Part shown: positions 5,356 through 28,997 of the stretch, piece by piece
Layout of the letters: the number at the start of each line of letters is the position of its first letter
Position numbering within the stretch: position 1 is the stretch's first letter
Assembly (NCBI GenBank): GCA_017510425.1
Contig: JAFWNJ010000014.1
Coordinates: 1-64,000 of the forward strand
From: Candidatus Saccharimonadota bacterium
Lineage (GTDB): Bacteria; Patescibacteriota; Saccharimonadia; Saccharimonadales; Saccharimonadaceae
DNA length: 64,000 nt
Direction: 5' to 3'
The notes under the pieces: model-generated
The model's database searches: none
Seen by the model: the letters and a program-made list of their open reading frames with translations, nothing else
Told to the model about the DNA's origin: nothing
Translations under genes and position numbers: made by a program

Positions 5356-6945
5356 ATGAAAATAAATAATGCTTTGATACTCGGAATACCACTTGCGGTT
5401 ACGATTATTTCTGGTGTGCTGCTTTCTTCTAGCTATGCTTCAGCCGACGATGTAGTGGATGAAGTCAGCATCACCGTTCCAGAGTCTTGTTCTTTAAGTG
5501 GCACCGGTATGGATACTCATAATGCCAATATCGCAAACGGGACCATTAATTCCGCCATTGGTGAAACTACTATCAAGGCCATGTGTAACGATAATGAAGG
5601 ATTCGCTATCTACGCTATCGGCTATACCAATGATGAAGATGGCAAGAATGTATTAACTAACTTTACTCTAGGCTCTACTTATGATATCACCACTGGCACT
5701 GCCACAAACAGTAATACATCAAATTGGGCGATGAAACTCACCGCCACCACTAGCCCTACCCCCACCTATCCCATCATCATCGCAGGCAGTACTGACGATA
5801 CCGATAGAGAACAGGGCGATCCAGACTACACTACTTTCCAGGAAGTCCCAGACGATTACACTCTAGTCGCTAAACGGAAATCCGGCACCGATATCGGCGC
5901 CTCCGCCGAAGGCGCTTCTCTCAAAACCACCTACCAAGTCTACATCTCCCCTACTCAACCAGCTGGAACTTACACGGGCCAAGTCAAATACACCATGGTC
6001 CATCCACATAGTGCTGCCGCACCAGTAAAACCAATTAGCATAGAAACCGCCATGAAGAATGCCAACAAACAAAAACTAAATGGCTACTACAAAATGCAAG
6101 ATGTAGATAATACCATCTGTAGCACCGTTAATGTCCTAGAAGCCGATAGTATAGCAGAACTCATTGATACGCGTGATAACCAAGTCTACAAAGTCGCTAA
6201 ACTAAAAGACGGTAAATGCTGGATGGTAGAAAACCTCAACATTGCTGGTGGCACCGCCCTTTCTAGCACCGACACCGATTTTGAAGCAAGTTATACCTTA
6301 CCTACCACTAACGGCTGGACTGTCGCCGATGGTAAATTAATCCTCCCCGCCTCCGCCATTAAAAACGAAAATGACAATAACCTCACCGATAGCACTCAGT
6401 TTAGCGTTTATGACTATGCTTATGTTTTTAATTCAGGCAATCTAGAAGACTGTGGTAGAAATAATCACATTCCATGTTATTCCTACTATTCATGGGATAC
6501 TGCCACAGTGGGCTCAGGGAGGTTAATTGAAGCCGATAATACAGATGCATCATATAGCATTTGTCCAAAGGGGTGGAAACTGCCATCTACTGGTGGCGAC
6601 TCTAATGATGAATGGAAGCGAGGTGATTTATATGTATTGGCTACCGCATACGGAATTGATTTGGAAGAGTATCCATGGTCGAGAGATACAGGAACACTAA
6701 TTAGTTGGGACGAACCTGCGATTCCACCAGATTTCCTAATATCCAATAGCTATATTTCAGGAGAATTCTACAGTGGAAATTTCTATTATGACACAGGGTA
6801 TTATTGGTCTTCAACGTCACATTCTTCTGACACTTCCTACAATCTCTATCTTGGATATAGTGGTTTCAGCGTAGATGGCTCCCCCAACAATTATTATCAA
6901 AATCGCAAAAACGGTTATTCCGTCCGCTGCCTCTTCGGCTCCTAG
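5356..6945 (+). CDS. FISUMP-domain secreted surface protein (copy 1)
   Basis: A 529-aa protein with an N-terminal signal peptide (hydrophobic about 7-28, ending SYASADD). Its first ~220 residues share an arrangement with the protein at 22602 (ADDVVD, SCSLSGTG, NEGFAIYAIGY, YTGQVKYTMVHP). The C-terminal ~250 residues are a FISUMP domain (Fibrobacter major paralogous domain, C-type-lectin/FGE-like): LKDGKCWMVENLN, SICPKGWKLPS, YYWSSTS and a final YSVRCLF. Likely exported, binding or adhesive. It has a leader and a weak ribosome site (GAAAGG). The product is inferred from family motifs; the ligand is unknown. Confidence 0.7.
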   Translation: MKINNALILGIPLAVTIISGVLLSSSYASADDVVDEVSITVPESCSLSGTGMDTHNANIANGTINSAIGETTIKAMCNDNEGFAIYAIGYTNDEDGKNVLTNFTLGSTYDITTGTATNSNTSNWAMKLTATTSPTPTYPIIIAGSTDDTDREQGDPDYTTFQEVPDDYTLVAKRKSGTDIGASAEGASLKTTYQVYISPTQPAGTYTGQVKYTMVHPHSAAAPVKPISIETAMKNANKQKLNGYYKMQDVDNTICSTVNVLEADSIAELIDTRDNQVYKVAKLKDGKCWMVENLNIAGGTALSSTDTDFEASYTLPTTNGWTVADGKLILPASAIKNENDNNLTDSTQFSVYDYAYVFNSGNLEDCGRNNHIPCYSYYSWDTATVGSGRLIEADNTDASYSICPKGWKLPSTGGDSNDEWKRGDLYVLATAYGIDLEEYPWSRDTGTLISWDEPAIPPDFLISNSYISGEFYSGNFYYDTGYYWSSTSHSSDTSYNLYLGYSGFSVDGSPNNYYQNRKNGYSVRCLFGS

Positions 6946-20369: not shown

Positions 20370-21542
20370 CTAAGCTATCAAATCCTCGCCATATTGCACC
20401 GCATGGAGGTGGTTTTGGTTTAAGGTGTCACGATATTTTGCGGATAAATCCTTCCGTCCCACTAATTCCGCGACATCAATTGCAATATCGTATCTCGATG
20501 CCGCATTCCGTCTTAACATCTCAAACGGCGTGGTGGTCGAACCCTCTTCATTGAAGCCATGTACTCTTAGTCGCCCGCGCATTGTGTAGTTTTCCAAAAT
20601 GTTTTCTAGTGTTTCCGGGTAGCCATGGAAGTTTGCAATAATGGGCTTATTAGTAGTGAATAGCTCTATAAATTTAGCTTTAGTTAGCTTATTGTCGGTA
20701 GTGCCAATTCCGCGGTAAGACAAGGCATTGATGTAGACAAATCTAATCCGGATTTTCGGCAAATCCTTCTTCAGAATCCGAATCGCTTCAATCATCTCGT
20801 GTGCAACGATGTCACCACAAGCCGTAAATACGATATTCGGCTCTTCATCTGAAACAAATTGATAAATACTAGCCCCACCATTTACAAATTCGAAATTAGC
20901 ATGATGTGAATCGATATACCGTGGCCGGTCATTCTTGTCGAATGTCGCGAGATTCACCACATCCATAGAATTAATCATAAAATTGTAAGTCTCTTCCGCC
21001 GCCACATCATCAATCGGGAAAAGACAGTTCGCCAGATTTGATGGCACCGATAGTAACTGCGAAATTAGTGCCGGCGATTGATGGGTGAAGCCATTATGAT
21101 CCTGGCGCCAGCAGGTCGAGGTAGATAGTAAATTCACTGACGGTATCGGCGCACGCCATTTGACAGCTTTTGATTGCTTGATAAATTTCATTTGCTGTAG
21201 TAGCTGCGAAGTAATTATAGGCAGGAATGCCTCGTAGCTCCCCATCATGGCTTTCTCACCGTTCGCCAGATGCCCAGTCATCACAGAGAAAAGCACATTC
21301 TCCGATAGCATTTCCACAATGCGCCCATTTGCTGACTCGGGCAAATCCCAGTCTTTTACCGGCAGCTCACCCCACGCCCGCTTTTCTACTTCAAAAATCT
21401 GATCAAACTTGTTCGAAGTCGTCTCGTCCGGTGAAAAGAAATAAAAGTGTGGATCCTTCTTAAACTCGGCTGTGAGTAGCTCGCCAATTTTCTTGGCTGA
21501 AGAATATTTTTCTATGCCGGGCTGGCTTACGCTTTCAATCAC
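20370..21542 (-). CDS. Phosphoketolase, C-terminal subunit (pyrimidine-binding and C-terminal domains)
   Basis: A 390-aa protein matching the second half of bacterial phosphoketolase (XFP): FSPDETTSNKF, WRQDHNGFTHQSPALI, IRFVYINALSYRGIG, NFHGYPETLENIL and RGRLRVHGFNEEGSTTTPFEMLRRN. With the upstream gene it should cleave xylulose-5-P (and perhaps fructose-6-P) to acetyl-phosphate and glyceraldehyde-3-P. It starts at GTG 21542, overlapping the upstream stop by 8 bases (GTGATTGA), with GGAGG at ideal spacing. Normal phosphoketolases are single chains of about 790-820 aa; the split lies in the linker between the two TPP half-sites. Confidence 0.88.
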   Translation of the reverse strand: MIESVSQPGIEKYSSAKKIGELLTAEFKKDPHFYFFSPDETTSNKFDQIFEVEKRAWGELPVKDWDLPESANGRIVEMLSENVLFSVMTGHLANGEKAMMGSYEAFLPIITSQLLQQMKFIKQSKAVKWRAPIPSVNLLSTSTCWRQDHNGFTHQSPALISQLLSVPSNLANCLFPIDDVAAEETYNFMINSMDVVNLATFDKNDRPRYIDSHHANFEFVNGGASIYQFVSDEEPNIVFTACGDIVAHEMIEAIRILKKDLPKIRIRFVYINALSYRGIGTTDNKLTKAKFIELFTTNKPIIANFHGYPETLENILENYTMRGRLRVHGFNEEGSTTTPFEMLRRNAASRYDIAIDVAELVGRKDLSAKYRDTLNQNHLHAVQYGEDLIA

Positions 21543-22533
21543 CTTCTTCCTCCATTCCTTCTTCTTCTAATTTGGTATCATTCACCGCTTCGTCTTCAGT
21601 ATTATTGACCGCATTATTAAATAACTCATCAAATAGTTCCGTCGCTCGGTAACTCCTTAACCATTCTTCTAGCTGTTTTAGTTCTCCTTCATCGGTCTTT
21701 GGATTCTTTAGTGGAATTTGATGTGCATTATGATAACGATTCGGCCCACCTTCGCCCTTTTCAGTCTTCATAACAAAGAAAGGTGCTTCTGCTTTCTTGC
21801 TTAATGCGAGCTGGAACTCCTCGACATCTTCGCCAACCCAGTACGGCATGAAACCGAATCCGCGCAGCATTTCGTTTAATTCTCTTTCCGATTTCCGAGC
21901 GTAGATAGATGGCGCCGAAATTTTATAGCCATTCAGGTGCAGGATTGGTAGAATCCTACCATTATTAGACCCAGTCAGCAGATTTCGCAAGTTTAAAGAA
22001 TCAATCCCAGTAGCAGTCTCCAGCTCTCCGTCGCCAATTAATACGGTAGTAGTTTTTTCCGGGTGGCCCAGACTCATACCGTAAGCATTAGCAAGCGCAT
22101 AGCCTAGTTCCCCGCCCTCCGTAATGACACCTGGCGTGAATGGACTCGCATGGCTCGGAAATCCATCCGGCCACGAGAAATTCCGGCATAGGTACTCTAG
22201 CCCCGCCTCGTCCACGGTTGCTTGTGGATCAACCTTAGCCAGTTCCCCATCTAGCCATAGATTTGCATTGAGTGCCGGGAACCCATGCCCAGGCCCTAGG
22301 ATGAAACTGAAATTTGGCTCGTCTTTATATCTCGCTTTGAGATTCGCATATGCCACGTTAATCCCATGACAAGTTCCCCAGTGTCCGAGCAGCCTCGGCT
22401 TGATATCGTCGAATGTCAACTCTCTTTTTAGTAAGAAATTGTCCTGCAGAAAAAGTTGCGCCACCACTAAATAATCACATAAACGTATGCGTTTCTTAAT
22501 TCCTTCAATCTCCGCAATACCCACCGTACTCAT
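21535..22533 (-). CDS. Phosphoketolase, N-terminal subunit (TPP pyrophosphate-binding domain)
   Basis: A 332-aa protein matching the first half of phosphoketolase: LGHWGTCHGINVAYA, FILGPGHGFPALNANLWLDG, GGELGYALANAYGM, the TPP/Mg motif GDGELETATG ... HLNGYKI, and MKTEKGEGG. It ends in an acidic tail (EDEAVNDTKLEEEGMEEEGD) instead of the usual linker. I place the start at ATG 22533 (MSTVGIAEIEG), 6 bases after a TATATT box; the longer frame up to 22581 would read through the promoter. It overlaps the C-terminal gene by 8 bases. Confidence 0.88.
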   Translation of the reverse strand: MSTVGIAEIEGIKKRIRLCDYLVVAQLFLQDNFLLKRELTFDDIKPRLLGHWGTCHGINVAYANLKARYKDEPNFSFILGPGHGFPALNANLWLDGELAKVDPQATVDEAGLEYLCRNFSWPDGFPSHASPFTPGVITEGGELGYALANAYGMSLGHPEKTTTVLIGDGELETATGIDSLNLRNLLTGSNNGRILPILHLNGYKISAPSIYARKSERELNEMLRGFGFMPYWVGEDVEEFQLALSKKAEAPFFVMKTEKGEGGPNRYHNAHQIPLKNPKTDEGELKQLEEWLRSYRATELFDELFNNAVNNTEDEAVNDTKLEEEGMEEEGD

Positions 22534-22601
22534 ACTGATAATATAGCATAAAAACAATGCAAAATAAAGGTGAAAAACCACAAACGTGATATAATAGAAC
22601 C

Positions 22602-24368
22602 ATGAAAAATGTCATGGCAAAGTTAGATTTAATGATTCCAGTAGGTATTATGGGCATTACTTTACTTACCGGAGCTACTTTAGTATCAAATATCGCTTCC
22701 GCCGATGACGTAGTAGACCAAGCTATTATCGGTGTCCCTATGTCCTGTACGATGTCTGGTACTGGGCAGGATTCCCATAATGCTAATATCAATAATGGTA
22801 CCTATATTCCTAATATTGGTACTACTACTATGCATGTATTCTGTAATGATAATGAAGGATTCGCTATATATGCAGCAGGATATACAGGAGATGAGATAGG
22901 TGGAACTGATAGCAATAAACTAGTCGGAACATCAGCTAGTGGTAATGCCGTAATAGAATCAGGATTAGCTACATCAGCAGGAAATCCTGATGTGTCTAAC
23001 TGGGCGATGAAACTAGCAATCACTCAAGATTCTGGTGATACTACAGGTACCAATGCTTTTACTATAGATTCCGCTCCTAATGTAGCACTTCCCAGTGAAG
23101 CTGAATCGGGAGCTACAGCTGCTTCATTCTCTGAGTATCATGTAGTACCAAATGAATACGTCAAAGTAGCCCATAAGGTTACTTCCACTGACATGACGGC
23201 AAATACTGGTGGAGCGAAGATTACTACCACCTATGCAGCTTACATCTCTAAGACCCAAGCTGCCGATACATATACGGGACAAGTAATCTATACACTGGTT
23301 CACCCATCTACAGAAGTACCAAAAGTGTCAGTTAAATGTAATCCAACTGGTACTACGATTGGTACTAATTCTAATACTGATATTGTATGTATGCAAGACT
23401 TTGCCTCATTATCATCTTCAGCTAAATTTACCATCATAAGTAATATGGTAGAAGGAACCCAATATACATTAACTGATAAACGTGATGAGAAAACCTATAC
23501 AATATCCAAACTAGCTGATGGTAAAGTCTGGATGACTCAGAACCTAGACCTAGACCTAGATGAAAACACCACTTATACTAATGAAGATACTGATCTTGGC
23601 TGGAACACATCCACTAATACTTACGACACAGCCAGCTGGTCGCCAATACGTTCTACTTACGAAACATCCGCTAATAACATTCATGCCTGGTGCCAGGGTG
23701 GAATGTGGAATACTGAGTATGGTTATTGCGAACAAAACAACACTCCGGAATCTTATGACCCAGGAAACCTTTACTGGAACACGACTACCAGCGACTGGAC
23801 AGATTGGAATGCATATTATGGTTCATGTGACTATTCTACCAGTACTCCATCATGTAACGAATCGCTGAATCCGCTTTCTACCTACACGAGCTCTACAGGT
23901 ACGGCACAATATCACTTAGGTAACTATTACAACTGGCCAGCTGCTATCGCTTCTAATGATGCTAGCGTATATGGGTATGATGATGAAGATCCGGATACTC
24001 CTCTTATCAACCCTGAGACTCATCAATCTATCTGCCCAGCTGGTTGGACATTGCCATATGCGAATCATAACAATAATACACATCAATCAGAGGGTGATTT
24101 CGTAGACTTGTGGACTGAATACGGTTGGGAAAATAACAATAGATTCAGTGACATTTCTACTGTCTGGTCAGCTCCGCTCTACTTCACCCCCGCCAGCGGC
24201 TTCAACGGTAACCTCGGGGATGTTGGGTACTACGGCGGCTTCTGGTCCTCAGTCGCATTCAATGGCAGCAGTGCCCACTTCGCCTATTTCTACGTGGATG
24301 GCAGCGCCAGCCTAGCAGACAGCAACGCACGCGGCAATAGTGTTTCCGTCCGATGTTTACTTCGTTAG
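22602..24368 (+). CDS. FISUMP-domain secreted surface protein (copy 2), possible hypervariable C-terminus
   Basis: A 588-aa exported protein with a signal peptide (about 10-32, ending NIASADD) and the same N-terminal module as the gene at 5356. The FISUMP part includes LADGKVWMTQNLDLDLD, SICPAGWTLPYANHNN, and a final GFWSSVAFNGSS ... VSVRCLLR. TATAAT (22590-22595) is 6 bases before the ATG: leaderless. Base use changes sharply near 24175: before it codons are AT-ending, after it almost every codon ends in C, with many NNC codons. This is the pattern of a diversity-generating retroelement target derived from AAC-rich template, an inference. Confidence 0.7.
   Translation: MKNVMAKLDLMIPVGIMGITLLTGATLVSNIASADDVVDQAIIGVPMSCTMSGTGQDSHNANINNGTYIPNIGTTTMHVFCNDNEGFAIYAAGYTGDEIGGTDSNKLVGTSASGNAVIESGLATSAGNPDVSNWAMKLAITQDSGDTTGTNAFTIDSAPNVALPSEAESGATAASFSEYHVVPNEYVKVAHKVTSTDMTANTGGAKITTTYAAYISKTQAADTYTGQVIYTLVHPSTEVPKVSVKCNPTGTTIGTNSNTDIVCMQDFASLSSSAKFTIISNMVEGTQYTLTDKRDEKTYTISKLADGKVWMTQNLDLDLDENTTYTNEDTDLGWNTSTNTYDTASWSPIRSTYETSANNIHAWCQGGMWNTEYGYCEQNNTPESYDPGNLYWNTTTSDWTDWNAYYGSCDYSTSTPSCNESLNPLSTYTSSTGTAQYHLGNYYNWPAAIASNDASVYGYDDEDPDTPLINPETHQSICPAGWTLPYANHNNNTHQSEGDFVDLWTEYGWENNNRFSDISTVWSAPLYFTPASGFNGNLGDVGYYGGFWSSVAFNGSSAHFAYFYVDGSASLADSNARGNSVSVRCLLR
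24175..24366 (+). other. Candidate variable region at the 3' end of FISUMP copy 2
   Basis: About 190 bases with strongly raised GC at third positions and runs of NNC codons (TAC TAC GGC GGC; AGC AGT GCC CAC; GGC AGC GCC AGC), ending with TCCGTCCG shared with FISUMP copy 1. C-type-lectin-fold C-termini are the classical targets of diversity-generating retroelements. No reverse transcriptase or template repeat was recognised in the window. Confidence 0.4.
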
Positions 24369-24437
24369 TTCCAGGTTTAGCCCCTCCAGCCTTTCCTGAA
24401 AAACAAATCACAAGCCTACTAGACTCTGCTGACGGTT

Positions 24438-26543
24438 TTATCGAGTAGCACCCTTTCCTTCCATAAACTCCTTAATCCTAGCAACTTCGTCCCGTAAAGC
24501 CGCTGCGCGTTCGAATTCCAAATTCGCCGCTGCAAGTTGCATTTCAGACGACAGTTGCTTAATTAATCCAGGCAGTTCATCTTTCGGGATACGTCGTACA
24601 TCGAGTTTATTCTCCTTTTCCTTCTCCGGAATAATCGCGCGAAGACCCATGGAAATTTCCTTCACTACCGAATGCGGTGTAATACCGTGCTTGGCGTTAT
24701 ACTCTTTCTGAATTTCGCGCCGCCGATTGGTTTCAGAAATCGCCTTCTCCATACTCTCGGTAATGAAGTTCGCGTACATGATTACCTTCCCTTCTTCATG
24801 TCGTGCCGCGCGACCTATCGTCTGAATTAGCGCCGATTCGGAACGCAAAAACCCTTCCTTGTCCGCATCTAGTATTGCAACTAGTGACACCTCAGGTAAA
24901 TCCAGTCCTTCACGTAGCAGATTAATTCCCACCAGCACATCGTATACTCCCGCCCTTAAGTCGCGCAGAATATCTCCTCGCTCCAGAGTATCAATGTCTG
25001 AATGAATGTAGGCCGTCTTTATGCCACGCTCTTTTAAATGATCGGACAAATCCTCCGCCATTCGCTTTGTCAGAGTCGTGATTAGTGTCCTTTGCCCCTT
25101 CGCGATTCTCTTGTCAATCTCCTCCATCAGGTCATCAATCTGCCCATCCGAACTTCTCACCTCGATTTCCGGATCCAGCAGCCCGGTCGGGCGAATCACT
25201 TGCTCGGCTGGTTTCGGCGAGACTTCAAGCTCATATTCTCCCGGTGTCGCCGAGACGTAAACCGCCTGATTGATATGTTTCTGAAATTCACCGTAAGTCA
25301 GTGGCCGATTATCTAGAGCTGACGGCAGCCTAAATCCATAATCCACCAAGGCTACCTTGCGCGCATGGTCGCCGTTATACATCCCTCGCACCTGTGGCAA
25401 AGTCATATGTGACTCATCCACTATCATCAAATAATCATCCGGGAAGAAATCCAGCAAGGTCGATGGCGGCTCTCCGGGTTGGCGACCATCAAGATGCCGA
25501 GAATAATTCTCGATCCCCTTTACGAACCCAGTTTCCTTCAACATCTCAAGATCATATTTCGTCCTCTGCGACAATCTCTGCGCTTCTAGATATTTCTGAT
25601 GTTTCTCAAAATATTTCATCCGGTCTTCATATTCCGCCCGAATTGTCACCAAGGCCTTCTCTAATTGGTCCACTGGTGTCGCATAATGAGTATTTGGAAA
25701 AATGTGAATGTGTTCTGGCTTCTCGCGCACTTCTAACGTTAAAGGATCCACAATCTTCACTTCCTCCAAAGTGTCAAACCCAAATTCAAACCGGTATGCG
25801 AATTCACCATTTGCCGGAAACAAATCAATCGTGTCTCCCATCACTCGGAAGTTACCGCGTTCAAACGCCAAATCATTCCGGTGATATTGCATCGCCACTA
25901 GGCGGCGAATGAAGTCGAGTTGCGAAACTGGCACTAGAGAGCTTGAGGGATCTCCGGAGGTCACGACCGAGGTGGAAGATGCGCCGCCTCCGTGACGACG
26001 GGCGGCGGCGACATCGTGCCCGAAAGCCTCTAGTGCCAGTTTCCATTCATTTCCATTTCGCCACATCGGTAGCGACATCGCCGTATAATACGCCGGCGAG
26101 CCGATACCGTAAATACACGACACGGATGCTACGACGATTACATCTCGTCGAGTTAATAGCGCTTCGGTCGCCCCGTGTCTCAGGCGGTCAATCTCGTCAT
26201 TAATTGCCGAATCTTTCTCAATATACGTGTCGGTCGAGGCAATATAAGCCTCCGGCTGATAGTAATCGAAATACGACACGAAATAATGCACCTCGTTCTC
26301 AGGAAAGAAATCTCTAAACTCCGAATAAAGCTGTGCCGCTAGAGTTTTATTATGTGCTAAGACTAAAGTTGGCCTCTGTGTCTTCTCGATAATATTCGCC
26401 ATCGTGAAAGTTTTTCCTGACCCGGTCACACCTAGCAGAGTTTGTTCATGGACACCACGATTAATTCCGTCCACGAGTTGCTTAATCGCGGATGGCTGGT
26501 CGCCAGTCGGCTGGAATTTTGAAACCAATTTAAATTTAGCCAT
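24438..26543 (-). CDS. uvrB: Excinuclease ABC subunit B
   Basis: A 701-aa helicase-like nucleotide excision repair protein. Motifs: [14 protein letters not shown] (Walker A, about 38-51), the beta-hairpin [34 protein letters not shown] (Walker B), [27 protein letters not shown] and a C-terminal UVR motif that contacts UvrC. Odd: about 40 residues ([20 protein letters not shown] to [11 protein letters not shown], about 168-207) are inserted just before [14 protein letters not shown] and coded by palindromic element copy 3. TATAAT is 7 bases before ATG: leaderless. Confidence 0.96.
25924..26043. repeat. Palindromic element copy 3, inserted in frame in uvrB
   Basis: About 120 bp. Arms: GAAACTGGCACTAGAG then A and GCTT (25924-25944) against the reverse complement at 26023-26043 (AAGC, CTCTAGTGCCAGTTTC): 20 paired bases with one bulge, then weaker pairing. 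The core has CCGGAGGTCACGACCGAGG (25953-25971; copy 1 has CCGGAGGTTACGACCGAGG) and CCGTGACGACGGGCGG (25990-26005). Loops are CACG and GACG. In-frame; the core is read in the same frame as in gatB (SVVTSG in both). Confidence 0.8.
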
Positions 26544-26594
26544 ATCTATTATTATAACATGCTCTATCTACTTAAAATATGCTACAATGAAAAT

Positions 26595-26939
26595 ATGAGA
26601 ATTCTAGAAAAACCCATCACTAGGCAGGAACTAATTAATTCCTCGACCAATTTTATCGACGAAAATACCATCAAATCTGCCGTTGACATTAAGCGTGAAA
26701 TTATGGCGGTTGATTCGCCCATGCATTATGATTGCGAACAGCTCTTGCTTGAAAATAGCTCAAACCAAGCGGATATCTGGGGTATCAACCTCTATTTGGA
26801 TGAGGAAAACATAGACAACATGGTCGAATTTGATTCCATGATTAATATCCGCCCCGCTCAGGATAATCGTTCCCGTTCCGTTGAAAATCCAGAAATTCAA
26901 GCCAAGATCAAATCAGTGGTTTCAAAATGGATAATATAA
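26595..26939 (+). CDS. DUF5674-family protein
   Basis: A 114-aa protein: EKPITRQEL, IKSAVDIKREIMAV, HYDCEQLLLENSSNQADIWGINLY fit the DUF5674 pattern as I recall it. Function unknown. The start is ATG 26595; TACAAT at 26583-26588 is 6 bases upstream, making the message leaderless and an ATG at 26559 impossible. It is divergent from uvrB and overlaps the next gene by 13 bases. Confidence 0.7.
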   Translation: MRILEKPITRQELINSSTNFIDENTIKSAVDIKREIMAVDSPMHYDCEQLLLENSSNQADIWGINLYLDEENIDNMVEFDSMINIRPAQDNRSRSVENPEIQAKIKSVVSKWII

Positions 26940-27274
26940 ATCGTATTCATAGTAAAGAGGCTTATCAAGACTGGCTCACGCGCCCGATTACTTTTCAAAT
27001 GAGTAATATCGGCAGTGAGGTATCTCGTTCGCTCAAATGGACAGCGAAAAACAATAAACCCCGTGCCGACAAAGCTATCGATCGCGCCCTAGAACTTTTT
27101 GATTTCACTATTGAATCTAATATTAAAAATCACGCCCGCCTCACTGAAATATTAAAAGCCCGCGATGAATTCTGTGATTATTTTTTCGGCGACAATACTT
27201 ACCACACCGACCCGAATAAGATGCAAAAGTACTACGACGGCTTTGCCATGATTGATGCATTGCGCCCAAAATAG
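26927..27274 (+). CDS. Conserved hypothetical helical protein
   Basis: A 115-aa soluble, mostly helical protein (VSRSLKWTAKNNKPRADKAIDRALELFDFTIE, LTEILKARDEFCDYFFGDN). I do not recognise a family. It overlaps the DUF5674 gene by 13 bases and is followed 17 bases later by the DUF167 gene, so the three are probably co-transcribed. Confidence 0.65.
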   Translation: MDNINRIHSKEAYQDWLTRPITFQMSNIGSEVSRSLKWTAKNNKPRADKAIDRALELFDFTIESNIKNHARLTEILKARDEFCDYFFGDNTYHTDPNKMQKYYDGFAMIDALRPK

Positions 27275-27291
27275 TATTATAGGAACATGAT

Positions 27292-27510
27292 ATGTCGAAA
27301 TACTTAGTCACCGTCAAGCCCGGTTCGTCCCAAGAAAAAATCATTCAAACCACCCCTGGCGAGCTTACCATCTATCTCCGCGCCAAGCCTCATGATGGCG
27401 AGGCCAACGAAGCTCTTGTTAAAATGCTGTCCAAGCATTTTAAGATTCCAAAAACTTCCATTCAAATTCTTCGCGGCCACAGGTCTCACACCAAAATTAT
27501 CGAACTATAA
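27292..27510 (+). CDS. DUF167 (YggU-type) protein
   Basis: A 72-aa protein with the DUF167 layout: VKPGSSQEKI, LTIYLRAKPHDGEANEALVKMLSKHFKIPKTSIQILRGHRSHTK. The family is small, widespread and of uncertain role; the conserved GEANxALxxxLA segment and RGxxSxxK pattern are present. Convergent with lysS, 5 bases apart. Confidence 0.85.
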   Translation: MSKYLVTVKPGSSQEKIIQTTPGELTIYLRAKPHDGEANEALVKMLSKHFKIPKTSIQILRGHRSHTKIIEL

Positions 27511-27515
27511 CCAAT

Positions 27516-28997
27516 TTAATCTTCTTTACTCTTCATAGTCGGGAACGGCACCGCCTCGCGGCCCGGTACTCCTTCGAGTAGCCAGAAATTGCGTTCCGAG
27601 TTACCCCAGCCACAAGCTGGCGGCATACCATATTCAAGCATTTCTACGAAGTCCATATCAAGCATCTGAGCTTCTTCATCACCCGCATCGCGAGCCGCTT
27701 GCTGCTCCCGGAATCTCGCCAGCTGATCCAACGGGTCATTTAATTCTGAGAATCCATTTCCCATTTCGGTCCCGGCAATCACTGGATGGAATCTTTCCGT
27801 CACTAGAGGATTCTCAACCGATTTCTTCGCCAGTGGCGACAAACTCAAAGGCTCCTCAATCACCCAGTATGGTCCCGCCGAAGTCTTACGAATTAGTTTC
27901 CACACATCGTCAATCAGATGTGGTGTCGTGGTATTCTCGAGCTTCTTCACGAAATCTTCGCGTTTCAAATCATCTGCGCCCCAATTCTCTAGCAAAATCT
28001 TAATCAGTTGTTCCCTATCCGGATTAAATACGTCCACATTGTATTTCTCGCGCAGCAAATCCGCGTATTTATAGCGTGGCCATTCGCAATCTAAATCAAT
28101 CTCGAATCCGCCTACGTTAAATTTCAAAGTCCCCCAAGTCTCCTTGCAAACATACTTAATCATTTCTTCATAGAACTTCATGCCGTCTTCGTAGTTCTCA
28201 TAAGCTGCATAAGCCTCAAAAGCGATATGTTCCGGCAAATGCTCATCATCTACGCCTTCATTGCGAAATCTCGGTCCAATATCATATACCTTCTCGAATC
28301 CACCACCAAGTAGCCGCTTCAGCGGCAATTCGTGTGAAATGCGTAAATAAAAATCCTCATCCAGCGCATTCATATGCGTCACGAATGGCTGCGCATCGGC
28401 GCCACCCGTCGTATGCTCGAGCACTGGAATATTAATCTCGATAAACCCATGCGAATTCATAAAATCGCGTGTTGCCTGCCAGAACTTAGACCTCCTCACT
28501 AGTCTCTCGCGCACTTCAGGATTCACGTTCATGTCAATATATCGGCGACGGTAACGCTCTTCCTTGTTGGTAAATTTCTCTGGTAATGGGCGTAGAGATT
28601 TAGTTAGTAGCCTCACATAATCCGAGAACACTGATATCTCACCTGTCTGAGATTTATCTACCTTGCCAGTGGCTTCAACAAAATCCCCAATATCTAGAAG
28701 CTTAGTGTCTTTCGCTCCAAGGAGTCCCGCCGGCGTCTCCTCGGACGAGGCTCTCATGAAAATCTGTACTTCACCAGTATAATCACGTAGTTTCAAAAAA
28801 ACCAACTTACCAAATGAGCGAATCGCTATAATTCGCCCAACTATGGTAACTTCTTGCCCTTGTTTTTCATCAAAATGATTAATAATGTCAGCAATTTTAG
28901 CCGTGCGGTGAGCCTTAGATGGATATGGCTCTATCCCGCGTTCTTTTAGCTCCGTTAACTTGCGGAGTCTTTCGTTTCTATAATCTTCAAGTAACAT
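27516..28997 (-). CDS. lysS: Lysyl-tRNA synthetase (class II)
   Basis: A 493-aa class II enzyme that charges tRNA-Lys. N-terminal OB fold for the anticodon (about 55-145; VTIVGRIIAIRSFGKLVFLKLRD), then motif 1 around FINEINIPVLEHTTGGADAQPF, motif 2 FRNEGVDDEHLPEH and motif 3-like GMPPACGWG...R. TATAAT 6 bases before ATG (29004-29009): leaderless. The small residues of the DUF167 gene end just past it, so the 3' gap is very short. Confidence 0.95.
   Translation of the reverse strand: MLLEDYRNERLRKLTELKERGIEPYPSKAHRTAKIADIINHFDEKQGQEVTIVGRIIAIRSFGKLVFLKLRDYTGEVQIFMRASSEETPAGLLGAKDTKLLDIGDFVEATGKVDKSQTGEISVFSDYVRLLTKSLRPLPEKFTNKEERYRRRYIDMNVNPEVRERLVRRSKFWQATRDFMNSHGFIEINIPVLEHTTGGADAQPFVTHMNALDEDFYLRISHELPLKRLLGGGFEKVYDIGPRFRNEGVDDEHLPEHIAFEAYAAYENYEDGMKFYEEMIKYVCKETWGTLKFNVGGFEIDLDCEWPRYKYADLLREKYNVDVFNPDREQLIKILLENWGADDLKREDFVKKLENTTTPHLIDDVWKLIRKTSAGPYWVIEEPLSLSPLAKKSVENPLVTERFHPVIAGTEMGNGFSELNDPLDQLARFREQQAARDAGDEEAQMLDMDFVEMLEYGMPPACGWGNSERNFWLLEGVPGREAVPFPTMKSKED

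What the first reader, a model, noticed from the sequence alone, without database searches (positions are those of the whole stretch)
24175..24366. Possible diversity-generating-retroelement variable region in a FISUMP surface protein
The last ~190 bases of the second FISUMP gene switch abruptly to NNC codons and high GC, while the rest is AT-ending. DGRs mutate template adenines, turning AAC codons into NNC, and their targets are C-type-lectin-like C-termini such as this. DGRs are known to be frequent in CPR genomes.
Basis: partly seen in the sequence, partly recalled or inferred. Interest (0 to 1): 0.6.

Follow-up and report, generated by a model that had tools for sequence, protein, structure and literature searches.

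The report
Orphan DGR variable region in Saccharibacterium
The odd end of this surface-protein gene was written by a mutation machine (a diversity-generating retroelement) that scrambles protein tips; a sister species still carries that machine beside the same gene, but here its matching template and enzyme are missing, so the gene looks like a leftover, frozen variant.

Summary
In detail: third-position C rises from 18% to 62% in the last 63 codons of the FISUMP gene, change point 24177. The diversity-generating retroelement (DGR) reading is right for origin. In a same-genus Saccharibacteria genome (G089) the closest homologue (80% aa) sits beside an accessory gene, a DGR-type reverse transcriptase (RT) and a template repeat (TR); that TR differs from its own variable region (VR) only at adenines (27/53 A, 0/139 other). 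The window VR (24177-24368) differs from this TR at 25/50 adenines but 5/78 other bases in codon positions 1+2 (p=2e-8); the upstream gene shows no such bias (p=0.6). A 3' homing-type element is kept in VR form (24383-24395). No matching TR exists in the own assembly; uvrB follows directly; the only RT belongs to a different DGR on contig C15. Verdict: a genuine DGR variable region, now orphaned and probably frozen. Main rival: a cassette missing from the 94%-complete assembly. Leftover targets are known from Treponema denticola, so this is a new member of a known kind. Unusual: about 20 footprint-bearing tails in one genome with one RT, and a TR antisense to the RT throughout the genus.

The parts
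22602..24368 (+). FISUMP-type surface protein gene (588 aa), the DGR target gene
   Evidence: TIGR02145; 80% aa to the DGR target gene of G089; predicted C-type-lectin-like C-terminal domain.
24177..24368 (+). Variable region (VR): NNC-rich, high-GC C-terminal 63 codons plus stop
   Evidence: Change point at 24177. Against the G089 template repeat (L102:946-1137): 25/53 adenine sites and 22/139 other sites changed, 17 of the 22 in third codon positions; codon positions 1+2: 25/50 v 5/78, p=1.8e-8. 22 AAY codons in the TR, 17 changed, all 22 keep C/T in position 3.
24369..24396 (+). 3' continuation of TR/VR homology past the stop codon, with the IMH-like element CCTCCAGCCTTTC at 24383-24395 in its VR form (...GCCTTTC; TRs have ...GACTTTC)
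   Evidence: related DGR loci of this type share this element at the 3' end of TR/VR homology, with one fixed TR/VR difference that the window carries in VR state.
24438..26543 (-). uvrB, directly downstream: no accessory gene, RT or TR follows the VR here
   Evidence: a homologue next to uvrB in L155 also lacks a cassette, and L138 has the gene next to phosphoketolase.
26559..27274 (+). Two small genes (126 and 115 aa) whose homologues lie directly upstream of the DGR target gene in G089
   Evidence: L134 order g126, g115, FISUMP, accessory, RT; L146 order uvrB, g126, g115, FISUMP, lysS.

Best explanation
Window 24177-24368 (plus the 3' element to 24396) is the variable region of a DGR target gene. 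In an ancestor, a DGR reverse transcriptase copied a template repeat rich in AAC/AAT codons into cDNA, misincorporated opposite adenines, and the cDNA replaced the 3' end of this gene, giving NNC codons at the tip of a C-type-lectin-like, probably cell-surface, binding domain. The cassette that did this (accessory gene, RT, antisense TR, as still present next to the homologue in G089) is not next to the gene and has no counterpart in the assembly. The gene is therefore most likely an orphan: one variant fixed and now drifting mainly at silent sites, not one being diversified. Shown: VR origin, 3' element, absence of cognate TR/RT in the assembly. Inferred: surface display, ligand binding, and that diversification has stopped.
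For: Change point at 24177 equals the TR/VR boundary. G089 holds the homologue (80% aa) with accessory ORF (weak Avd match, E=0.024), RT with GNLTSQ and YVDD motifs and TR; its TR/VR pair differs at 27/53 A and 0/139 other sites. Window VR v that TR: positions 1+2 A 25/50, non-A 5/78, OR 14.6, p=1.8e-8; same test upstream OR 0.89, p=0.62. VR-form 3' element kept. No TR in own assembly by BLAST with the VR, adenine-tolerant pattern, BLAST with the G089 TR, which finds only VR tails, or an Asn-run pattern, whose only exact match is the C15 TR. One RT in the assembly, on C15, with its own TR1 (18 substitutions, all at A). The three VRs of this type in the genome differ from each other at 25-30 of 139 non-A sites, so one hidden TR cannot be rewriting all of them. 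17 of 30 same-genus genomes with strong FISUMP relatives have no RT match.
Against: The assembly is a 30-contig draft of 94% completeness; a short contig with the cassette could be missing. The TR used is from another species, so the window's own template was never seen. The window VR keeps an intact frame and its 3' element, so it may still be a usable target. Sites in the tests are treated as independent.
Confidence: 0.7

Rival explanations
1. Active target: the same variable region is still diversified, by a DGR cassette of the G089 type that is present in the organism but missing from the draft assembly, or present in other cells of the population.
For: 94% complete, 30 contigs. Frame and 3' VR element intact. 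Three VRs of this type are kept in the genome. In Thiohalocapsa PB-PSB1 some VRs without a template in the assembly were diversified by cells holding intact variants (PMC10907252).
Against: No RT fragment or TR besides those on C15. The three VRs of this type differ at 25-30 of 139 non-A sites, while actively rewritten VRs match their TR there (0/139 in G089, 0/129 for VR1).
Confidence: 0.22
2. The C15 DGR of the same genome (TR1 and its RT) acts on this gene in trans.
For: TR1-type VRs exist on other contigs (C10, C3, C18: 5-7 of 129 non-A mismatches), so the C15 system has acted, or acts, on remote genes.
Against: The closest TR to the window VR is the G089 TR, not TR1; the adenine-tolerant scan of loci finds no TR1 match to the window VR; the 3' element differs.
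Confidence: 0.03
3. Not DGR-made: the tail is a GC-rich module acquired by recombination or shaped by ordinary diversifying selection on a ligand-binding face.
For: FISUMP 3' modules do recombine: L136 and L163 share a 3' stretch that is 99% identical while their 5' parts are 56% identical.
Against: Adenine specificity against a real template, absent upstream, third positions of all 22 template AAY codons kept C/T, and the VR-state 3' element beyond the coding region are not expected from selection alone. Recombination may have moved the module, but the module itself is DGR-made.
Confidence: 0.05

Closest known systems
Leftover DGR target genes in Treponema denticola strains lacking RT and TR (PMC4891356)
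   Same: A target gene whose VR differs from another strain's TR mostly at adenines (e.g. 19 of 21 changes) in a genome without the matching cassette.
   Different: Here the TR comes from another species of the genus, the target is a FISUMP protein of a Saccharibacterium, and the same genome still has a DGR of another type.
DGR target proteins with Fib_succ_major / DUF1566 domains in human microbiomes (PMC4159848)
   Same: The same domain family as a DGR target, C-terminal VR; DUF1566 is likened there to the TvpA variable-protein fold.
   Different: Those were found as parts of DGR systems; the host group here is Saccharibacteria and the cassette is absent.
DGR clade 2 of Patescibacteria/CPR (Roux et al. 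2021, PMC8144416)
   Same: Cell-encoded DGRs in CPR bacteria, a group enriched in DGRs.
   Different: That survey states it could not detect remote targets away from the RT. Whether the RTs here fall in clade 2 was not tested.
Inverted DGRs of Shewanella/Vibrio/Photobacterium (DiGReF, PMC3521204)
   Same: RT and TR on opposite strands.
   Different: There TR, VR and target share one strand; here RT and adjacent target usually share a strand and the TR alone is antisense, 3' of the RT.

Membership tests
DGR variable region | Differences from a template repeat confined to (or strongly enriched at) template adenines | tested here: met
   Against the TR of the same-genus homologue: positions 1+2 A 25/50, non-A 5/78, p=1.8e-8; upstream control p=0.62. 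Enriched, not exclusive, as expected for a template from another species.
DGR variable region | VR at the 3' end of a gene with a C-type-lectin-like or other diversity-tolerating domain | tested here: met
   VR is the last 63 codons. Model pLDDT 86, pTM 0.89. Best VIA-align rows: Lcl C-terminal domain (Z 6.8, rmsd 2.7, 106 aligned), Bd2740 C-terminal domain (Z 5.9), OvoA (Z 5.4), fimbrial protein 4eps (Z 5.3), then C-type lectins. Z below 8 is moderate, and Foldseek alone had no significant match.
DGR variable region | IMH-type element at the 3' end, near-identical to IMH* of the TR | tested here: met
   CCTCCAGCCTTTC at 24383-24395 in VR state; TRs of this type read GACTTTC. Its function was not tested.
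Complete DGR at this locus | RT gene with the cassette | tested here: not met
   uvrB follows directly; the only RT of the assembly is on C15.
Complete DGR at this locus | Template repeat in the genome matching the VR at all non-adenine bases | tested here: not met
   limited to a 94% complete draft.
Complete DGR at this locus | Hairpin/cruciform just 3' of the VR | tested here: not met
   No strong hairpin after the window VR (-8.0 kcal/mol), nor after the G089 VR (-3.7); the C15 VR has one of -63 kcal/mol.
Active DGR target | Population or read-level variation at adenine positions | not testable with these tools
   No reads or sister strains of the species were available.
FISUMP (TIGR02145 / PF09603) | Score over the curated cut-off | tested here: inconclusive
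   TIGR02145 41.2 v cut-off 41.65; no Pfam match at E<=1 on the whole protein; PF09603 9.9 bits in the genome scan. Other FISUMP genes of the genome exceed the cut-off.

The most novel reading that the evidence does not exclude
These Saccharibacteria keep an archive: about twenty FISUMP genes with DGR-written tips from several DGR lineages, most without a matching template, which together with recombination of 3' modules form a standing repertoire of fixed binding variants, refreshed by a DGR layout in which the template lies antisense to the RT throughout the genus.
Probability: 0.3. Interest if true: 0.6.

Novelty: new member of a known kind. Interest (0 to 1): 0.45.

Why it matters
It shows that in these small, probably host-dependent bacteria a DGR's product can outlive the DGR: the footprint alone, with no RT nearby, identifies a past hypermutation target. 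RT-anchored surveys miss such genes (stated in PMC8144416), so the number of DGR-shaped surface proteins in CPR bacteria is probably underestimated. If the many frozen tails in one 840-kb genome are used, they would be a fixed repertoire of binding surfaces, which can be tested by expression and binding assays.

Tried and rejected
Looked for a TR in the held loci with an adenine-tolerant scan of the window VR: none until the G089 locus was fetched. The adenine-tolerant pattern over the genome found only the VR itself. PF07460 was searched by mistake as a DGR-related family and turned out to be NUMOD3, irrelevant. TR1 of C15 as template of the window VR: rejected. A hairpin after the window VR: none of note. 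Solved structures by sequence: none; Foldseek without VIA gave no significant match. No held paper names FISUMP together with DGRs, but Fib_succ_major does appear. Wu 2018 and Paul 2017 on DGR architecture are not held, so whether the antisense-TR layout of this genus has been described could not be checked.

Full report
WHAT WAS CHECKED. The window lies in G000 (840,325 bases, 30 contigs, 94.15% complete, 5.37% contamination), contig C24. Its same-genus relatives match GenBank MAGs titled Candidatus Saccharibacteria, many from goat, sheep, cattle, yak and water-buffalo gut.

OBSERVATION. The FISUMP gene is 22602-24368 (+), 588 codons. In the last 63 codons third-position C is 62% against 18% before, p=2e-12, and GC is 57.7% against at most 47.1% in any body stretch of equal length. 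The likelihood change point is codon 525 = window 24177.

OWN GENOME. PF00078 finds one RT, on C15; a search with that RT protein also finds only itself in this genome. Around it (locus L037) lie, in order on the minus strand, a 1245-aa FISUMP-type target, a 341-aa accessory ORF with an HTH_3 match, the 389-aa RT (GNLTSQ and YVDD motifs, as in DGR RTs), and then a template repeat TR1 on the opposite strand. TR1 and VR1 differ at 18 positions, all template adenines (9 A>G, 7 A>T, 2 A>C); the only two other differences in the counted stretch lie at its ends. So a complete DGR exists in this genome, but TR1 does not match the window VR.

THE DECISIVE COMPARISON. A genus-wide search with the window protein (99 genomes) gives as best match an 80% identical protein at G089:C21:3320-5011, and the RT search gives an RT at G089:C21:1205-2302 next to it. 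The locus (L102, also CAMOIR010000021.1 = L134) reads target gene, 293-aa accessory ORF (weak Avd match, E=0.024), 379-aa RT, TR on the opposite strand. G089 TR (L102:946-1137) against G089 VR: 27/53 adenine and 0/139 other sites differ. The window VR against the G089 TR: 25/53 adenine and 22/139 other sites, 17 of the 22 in third codon positions. In codon positions 1+2 the contrast is 25/50 v 5/78 (OR 14.6, p=1.8e-8), while the same test on the gene body upstream gives OR 0.89, p=0.62. Of 22 AAY codons in the TR, 17 encode another residue in the window, and all 22 keep C or T in position 3. This is adenine mutagenesis followed by silent drift. The two other close VRs of this genome, at C4:93-343 and C24:96266-96457, show the same.

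3' ELEMENT. In DGR loci of this type the TR/VR homology continues past the stop codon and ends at a shared element, CC(T/C)(T/C)C(A/C)G-A-CTTTC in the TR and ...G-C/T-CTTTC in the VR. It was read for L102, L103 (the same locus as L160), L104, L150, L159 and L170. The window has CCTCCAGCCTTTC at 24383-24395, the VR form. This resembles IMH/IMH* of BPP-1 (PMC3240598; PMC12875486); its role here is inferred.

NO COGNATE CASSETTE. The VR is followed at once by uvrB (24438-26543). No TR was found by BLAST with the VR, by adenine-tolerant pattern, by BLAST with the G089 TR, which finds only VR tails in G000, or by an Asn-run pattern, which finds the C15 TR and one two-mismatch place not examined further. 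A homologue lies next to uvrB in L155 (no cassette) and next to phosphoketolase in L138 (contig ends), while in G089 a homologue with cassette follows the small genes g126/g115, whose homologues lie in the window at 26559-27274. The three VRs of this type in G000 differ from each other at 25-30 of 139 non-adenine sites, so they are not all being rewritten from one unseen template.

FOLD. AlphaFold2 on residues 279-588 with an alignment of 34 sequences gives pLDDT 86, pTM 0.89. VIA-align's best rows are Legionella Lcl C-terminal domain (Z 6.8, rmsd 2.7, 106 aligned), Bdellovibrio Bd2740 C-terminal domain (Z 5.9), OvoA (Z 5.4), fimbrial protein 4eps (Z 5.3), then C-type lectins. That is consistent with a C-type-lectin-like domain but moderate; Foldseek itself had nothing significant.

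BREADTH. Of 28 FISUMP tails in G000 compared with 30 TRs of the genus, 20 show adenine excess at codon positions 1+2 at p<=0.02 (uncorrected), with best TRs from several lineages; only the C15 TR is present in the genome. Four tails fit TR1 (VR1 with 0, the others with 5-7 of 129 non-A mismatches). In the genus, 17 of 30 genomes with a strong relative of the window protein have no RT match at E<=1e-20. Each p-value treats sites as independent and the best TR was picked per tail, so single weak cases should not be trusted.

KNOWN OR NEW. Leftover target genes without RT/TR, with adenine-biased VRs, are described in Treponema denticola (PMC4891356). Fib_succ_major domains as DGR targets are described (PMC4159848). 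Inverted DGRs are described with TR, VR and target together opposite the RT (PMC3521204). Here the TR is antisense to the RT in all 30 loci where a TR could be placed; whether this was described for CPR bacteria could not be checked.

VERDICT. VR origin: about 0.95. Orphan and frozen: about 0.7. Still active through a cassette missing from the assembly: about 0.22.

Noticed in passing
L037:9863-16282 (G000 contig C15): A complete, apparently recent DGR: FISUMP target with VR1, HTH-bearing accessory ORF, RT, antisense TR1; 18 of 18 internal differences at template adenines, and a very stable hairpin (-63 kcal/mol) just 3' of VR1.
   Followed up: yes
L073-L106, L113-L114, L037: In all 30 same-genus DGR loci where a TR could be placed, the TR lies 3' of the RT on the opposite strand (antisense to the RT), whereas the adjacent VR is usually on the RT strand.
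   Followed up: partly
L001-L036 (FISUMP genes of G000): About 20 of 28 FISUMP tails in one 840-kb genome carry an adenine footprint against TRs of several lineages, though only one RT and one TR are in the assembly.
   Followed up: partly
L136:840-2549 and L163:6001-7674: Two FISUMP genes from different MAGs share a 3' stretch including the VR that is about 99% identical while their 5' parts are 56% identical: mosaic genes, 3' modules moved by recombination.
   Followed up: partly
L037:11275-12300 and L102:2316-3197: DGR accessory ORFs are much longer than the Avd model (341 and 293 aa against 104 positions); one has an N-terminal HTH, the other a weak C-terminal Avd match, suggesting Avd-like domains fused to other domains.
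   Followed up: no
window 6415-6933: The first FISUMP gene of the window has no detectable adenine footprint in its tail (p=0.73 against its best TR).
   Followed up: partly
window 20370-28997: The phosphoketolase, uvrB, g126, g115, lysS neighbourhood is conserved in the genus and carries FISUMP genes at two alternative sites, with or without DGR cassette (L134, L138, L146, L155).
   Followed up: partly
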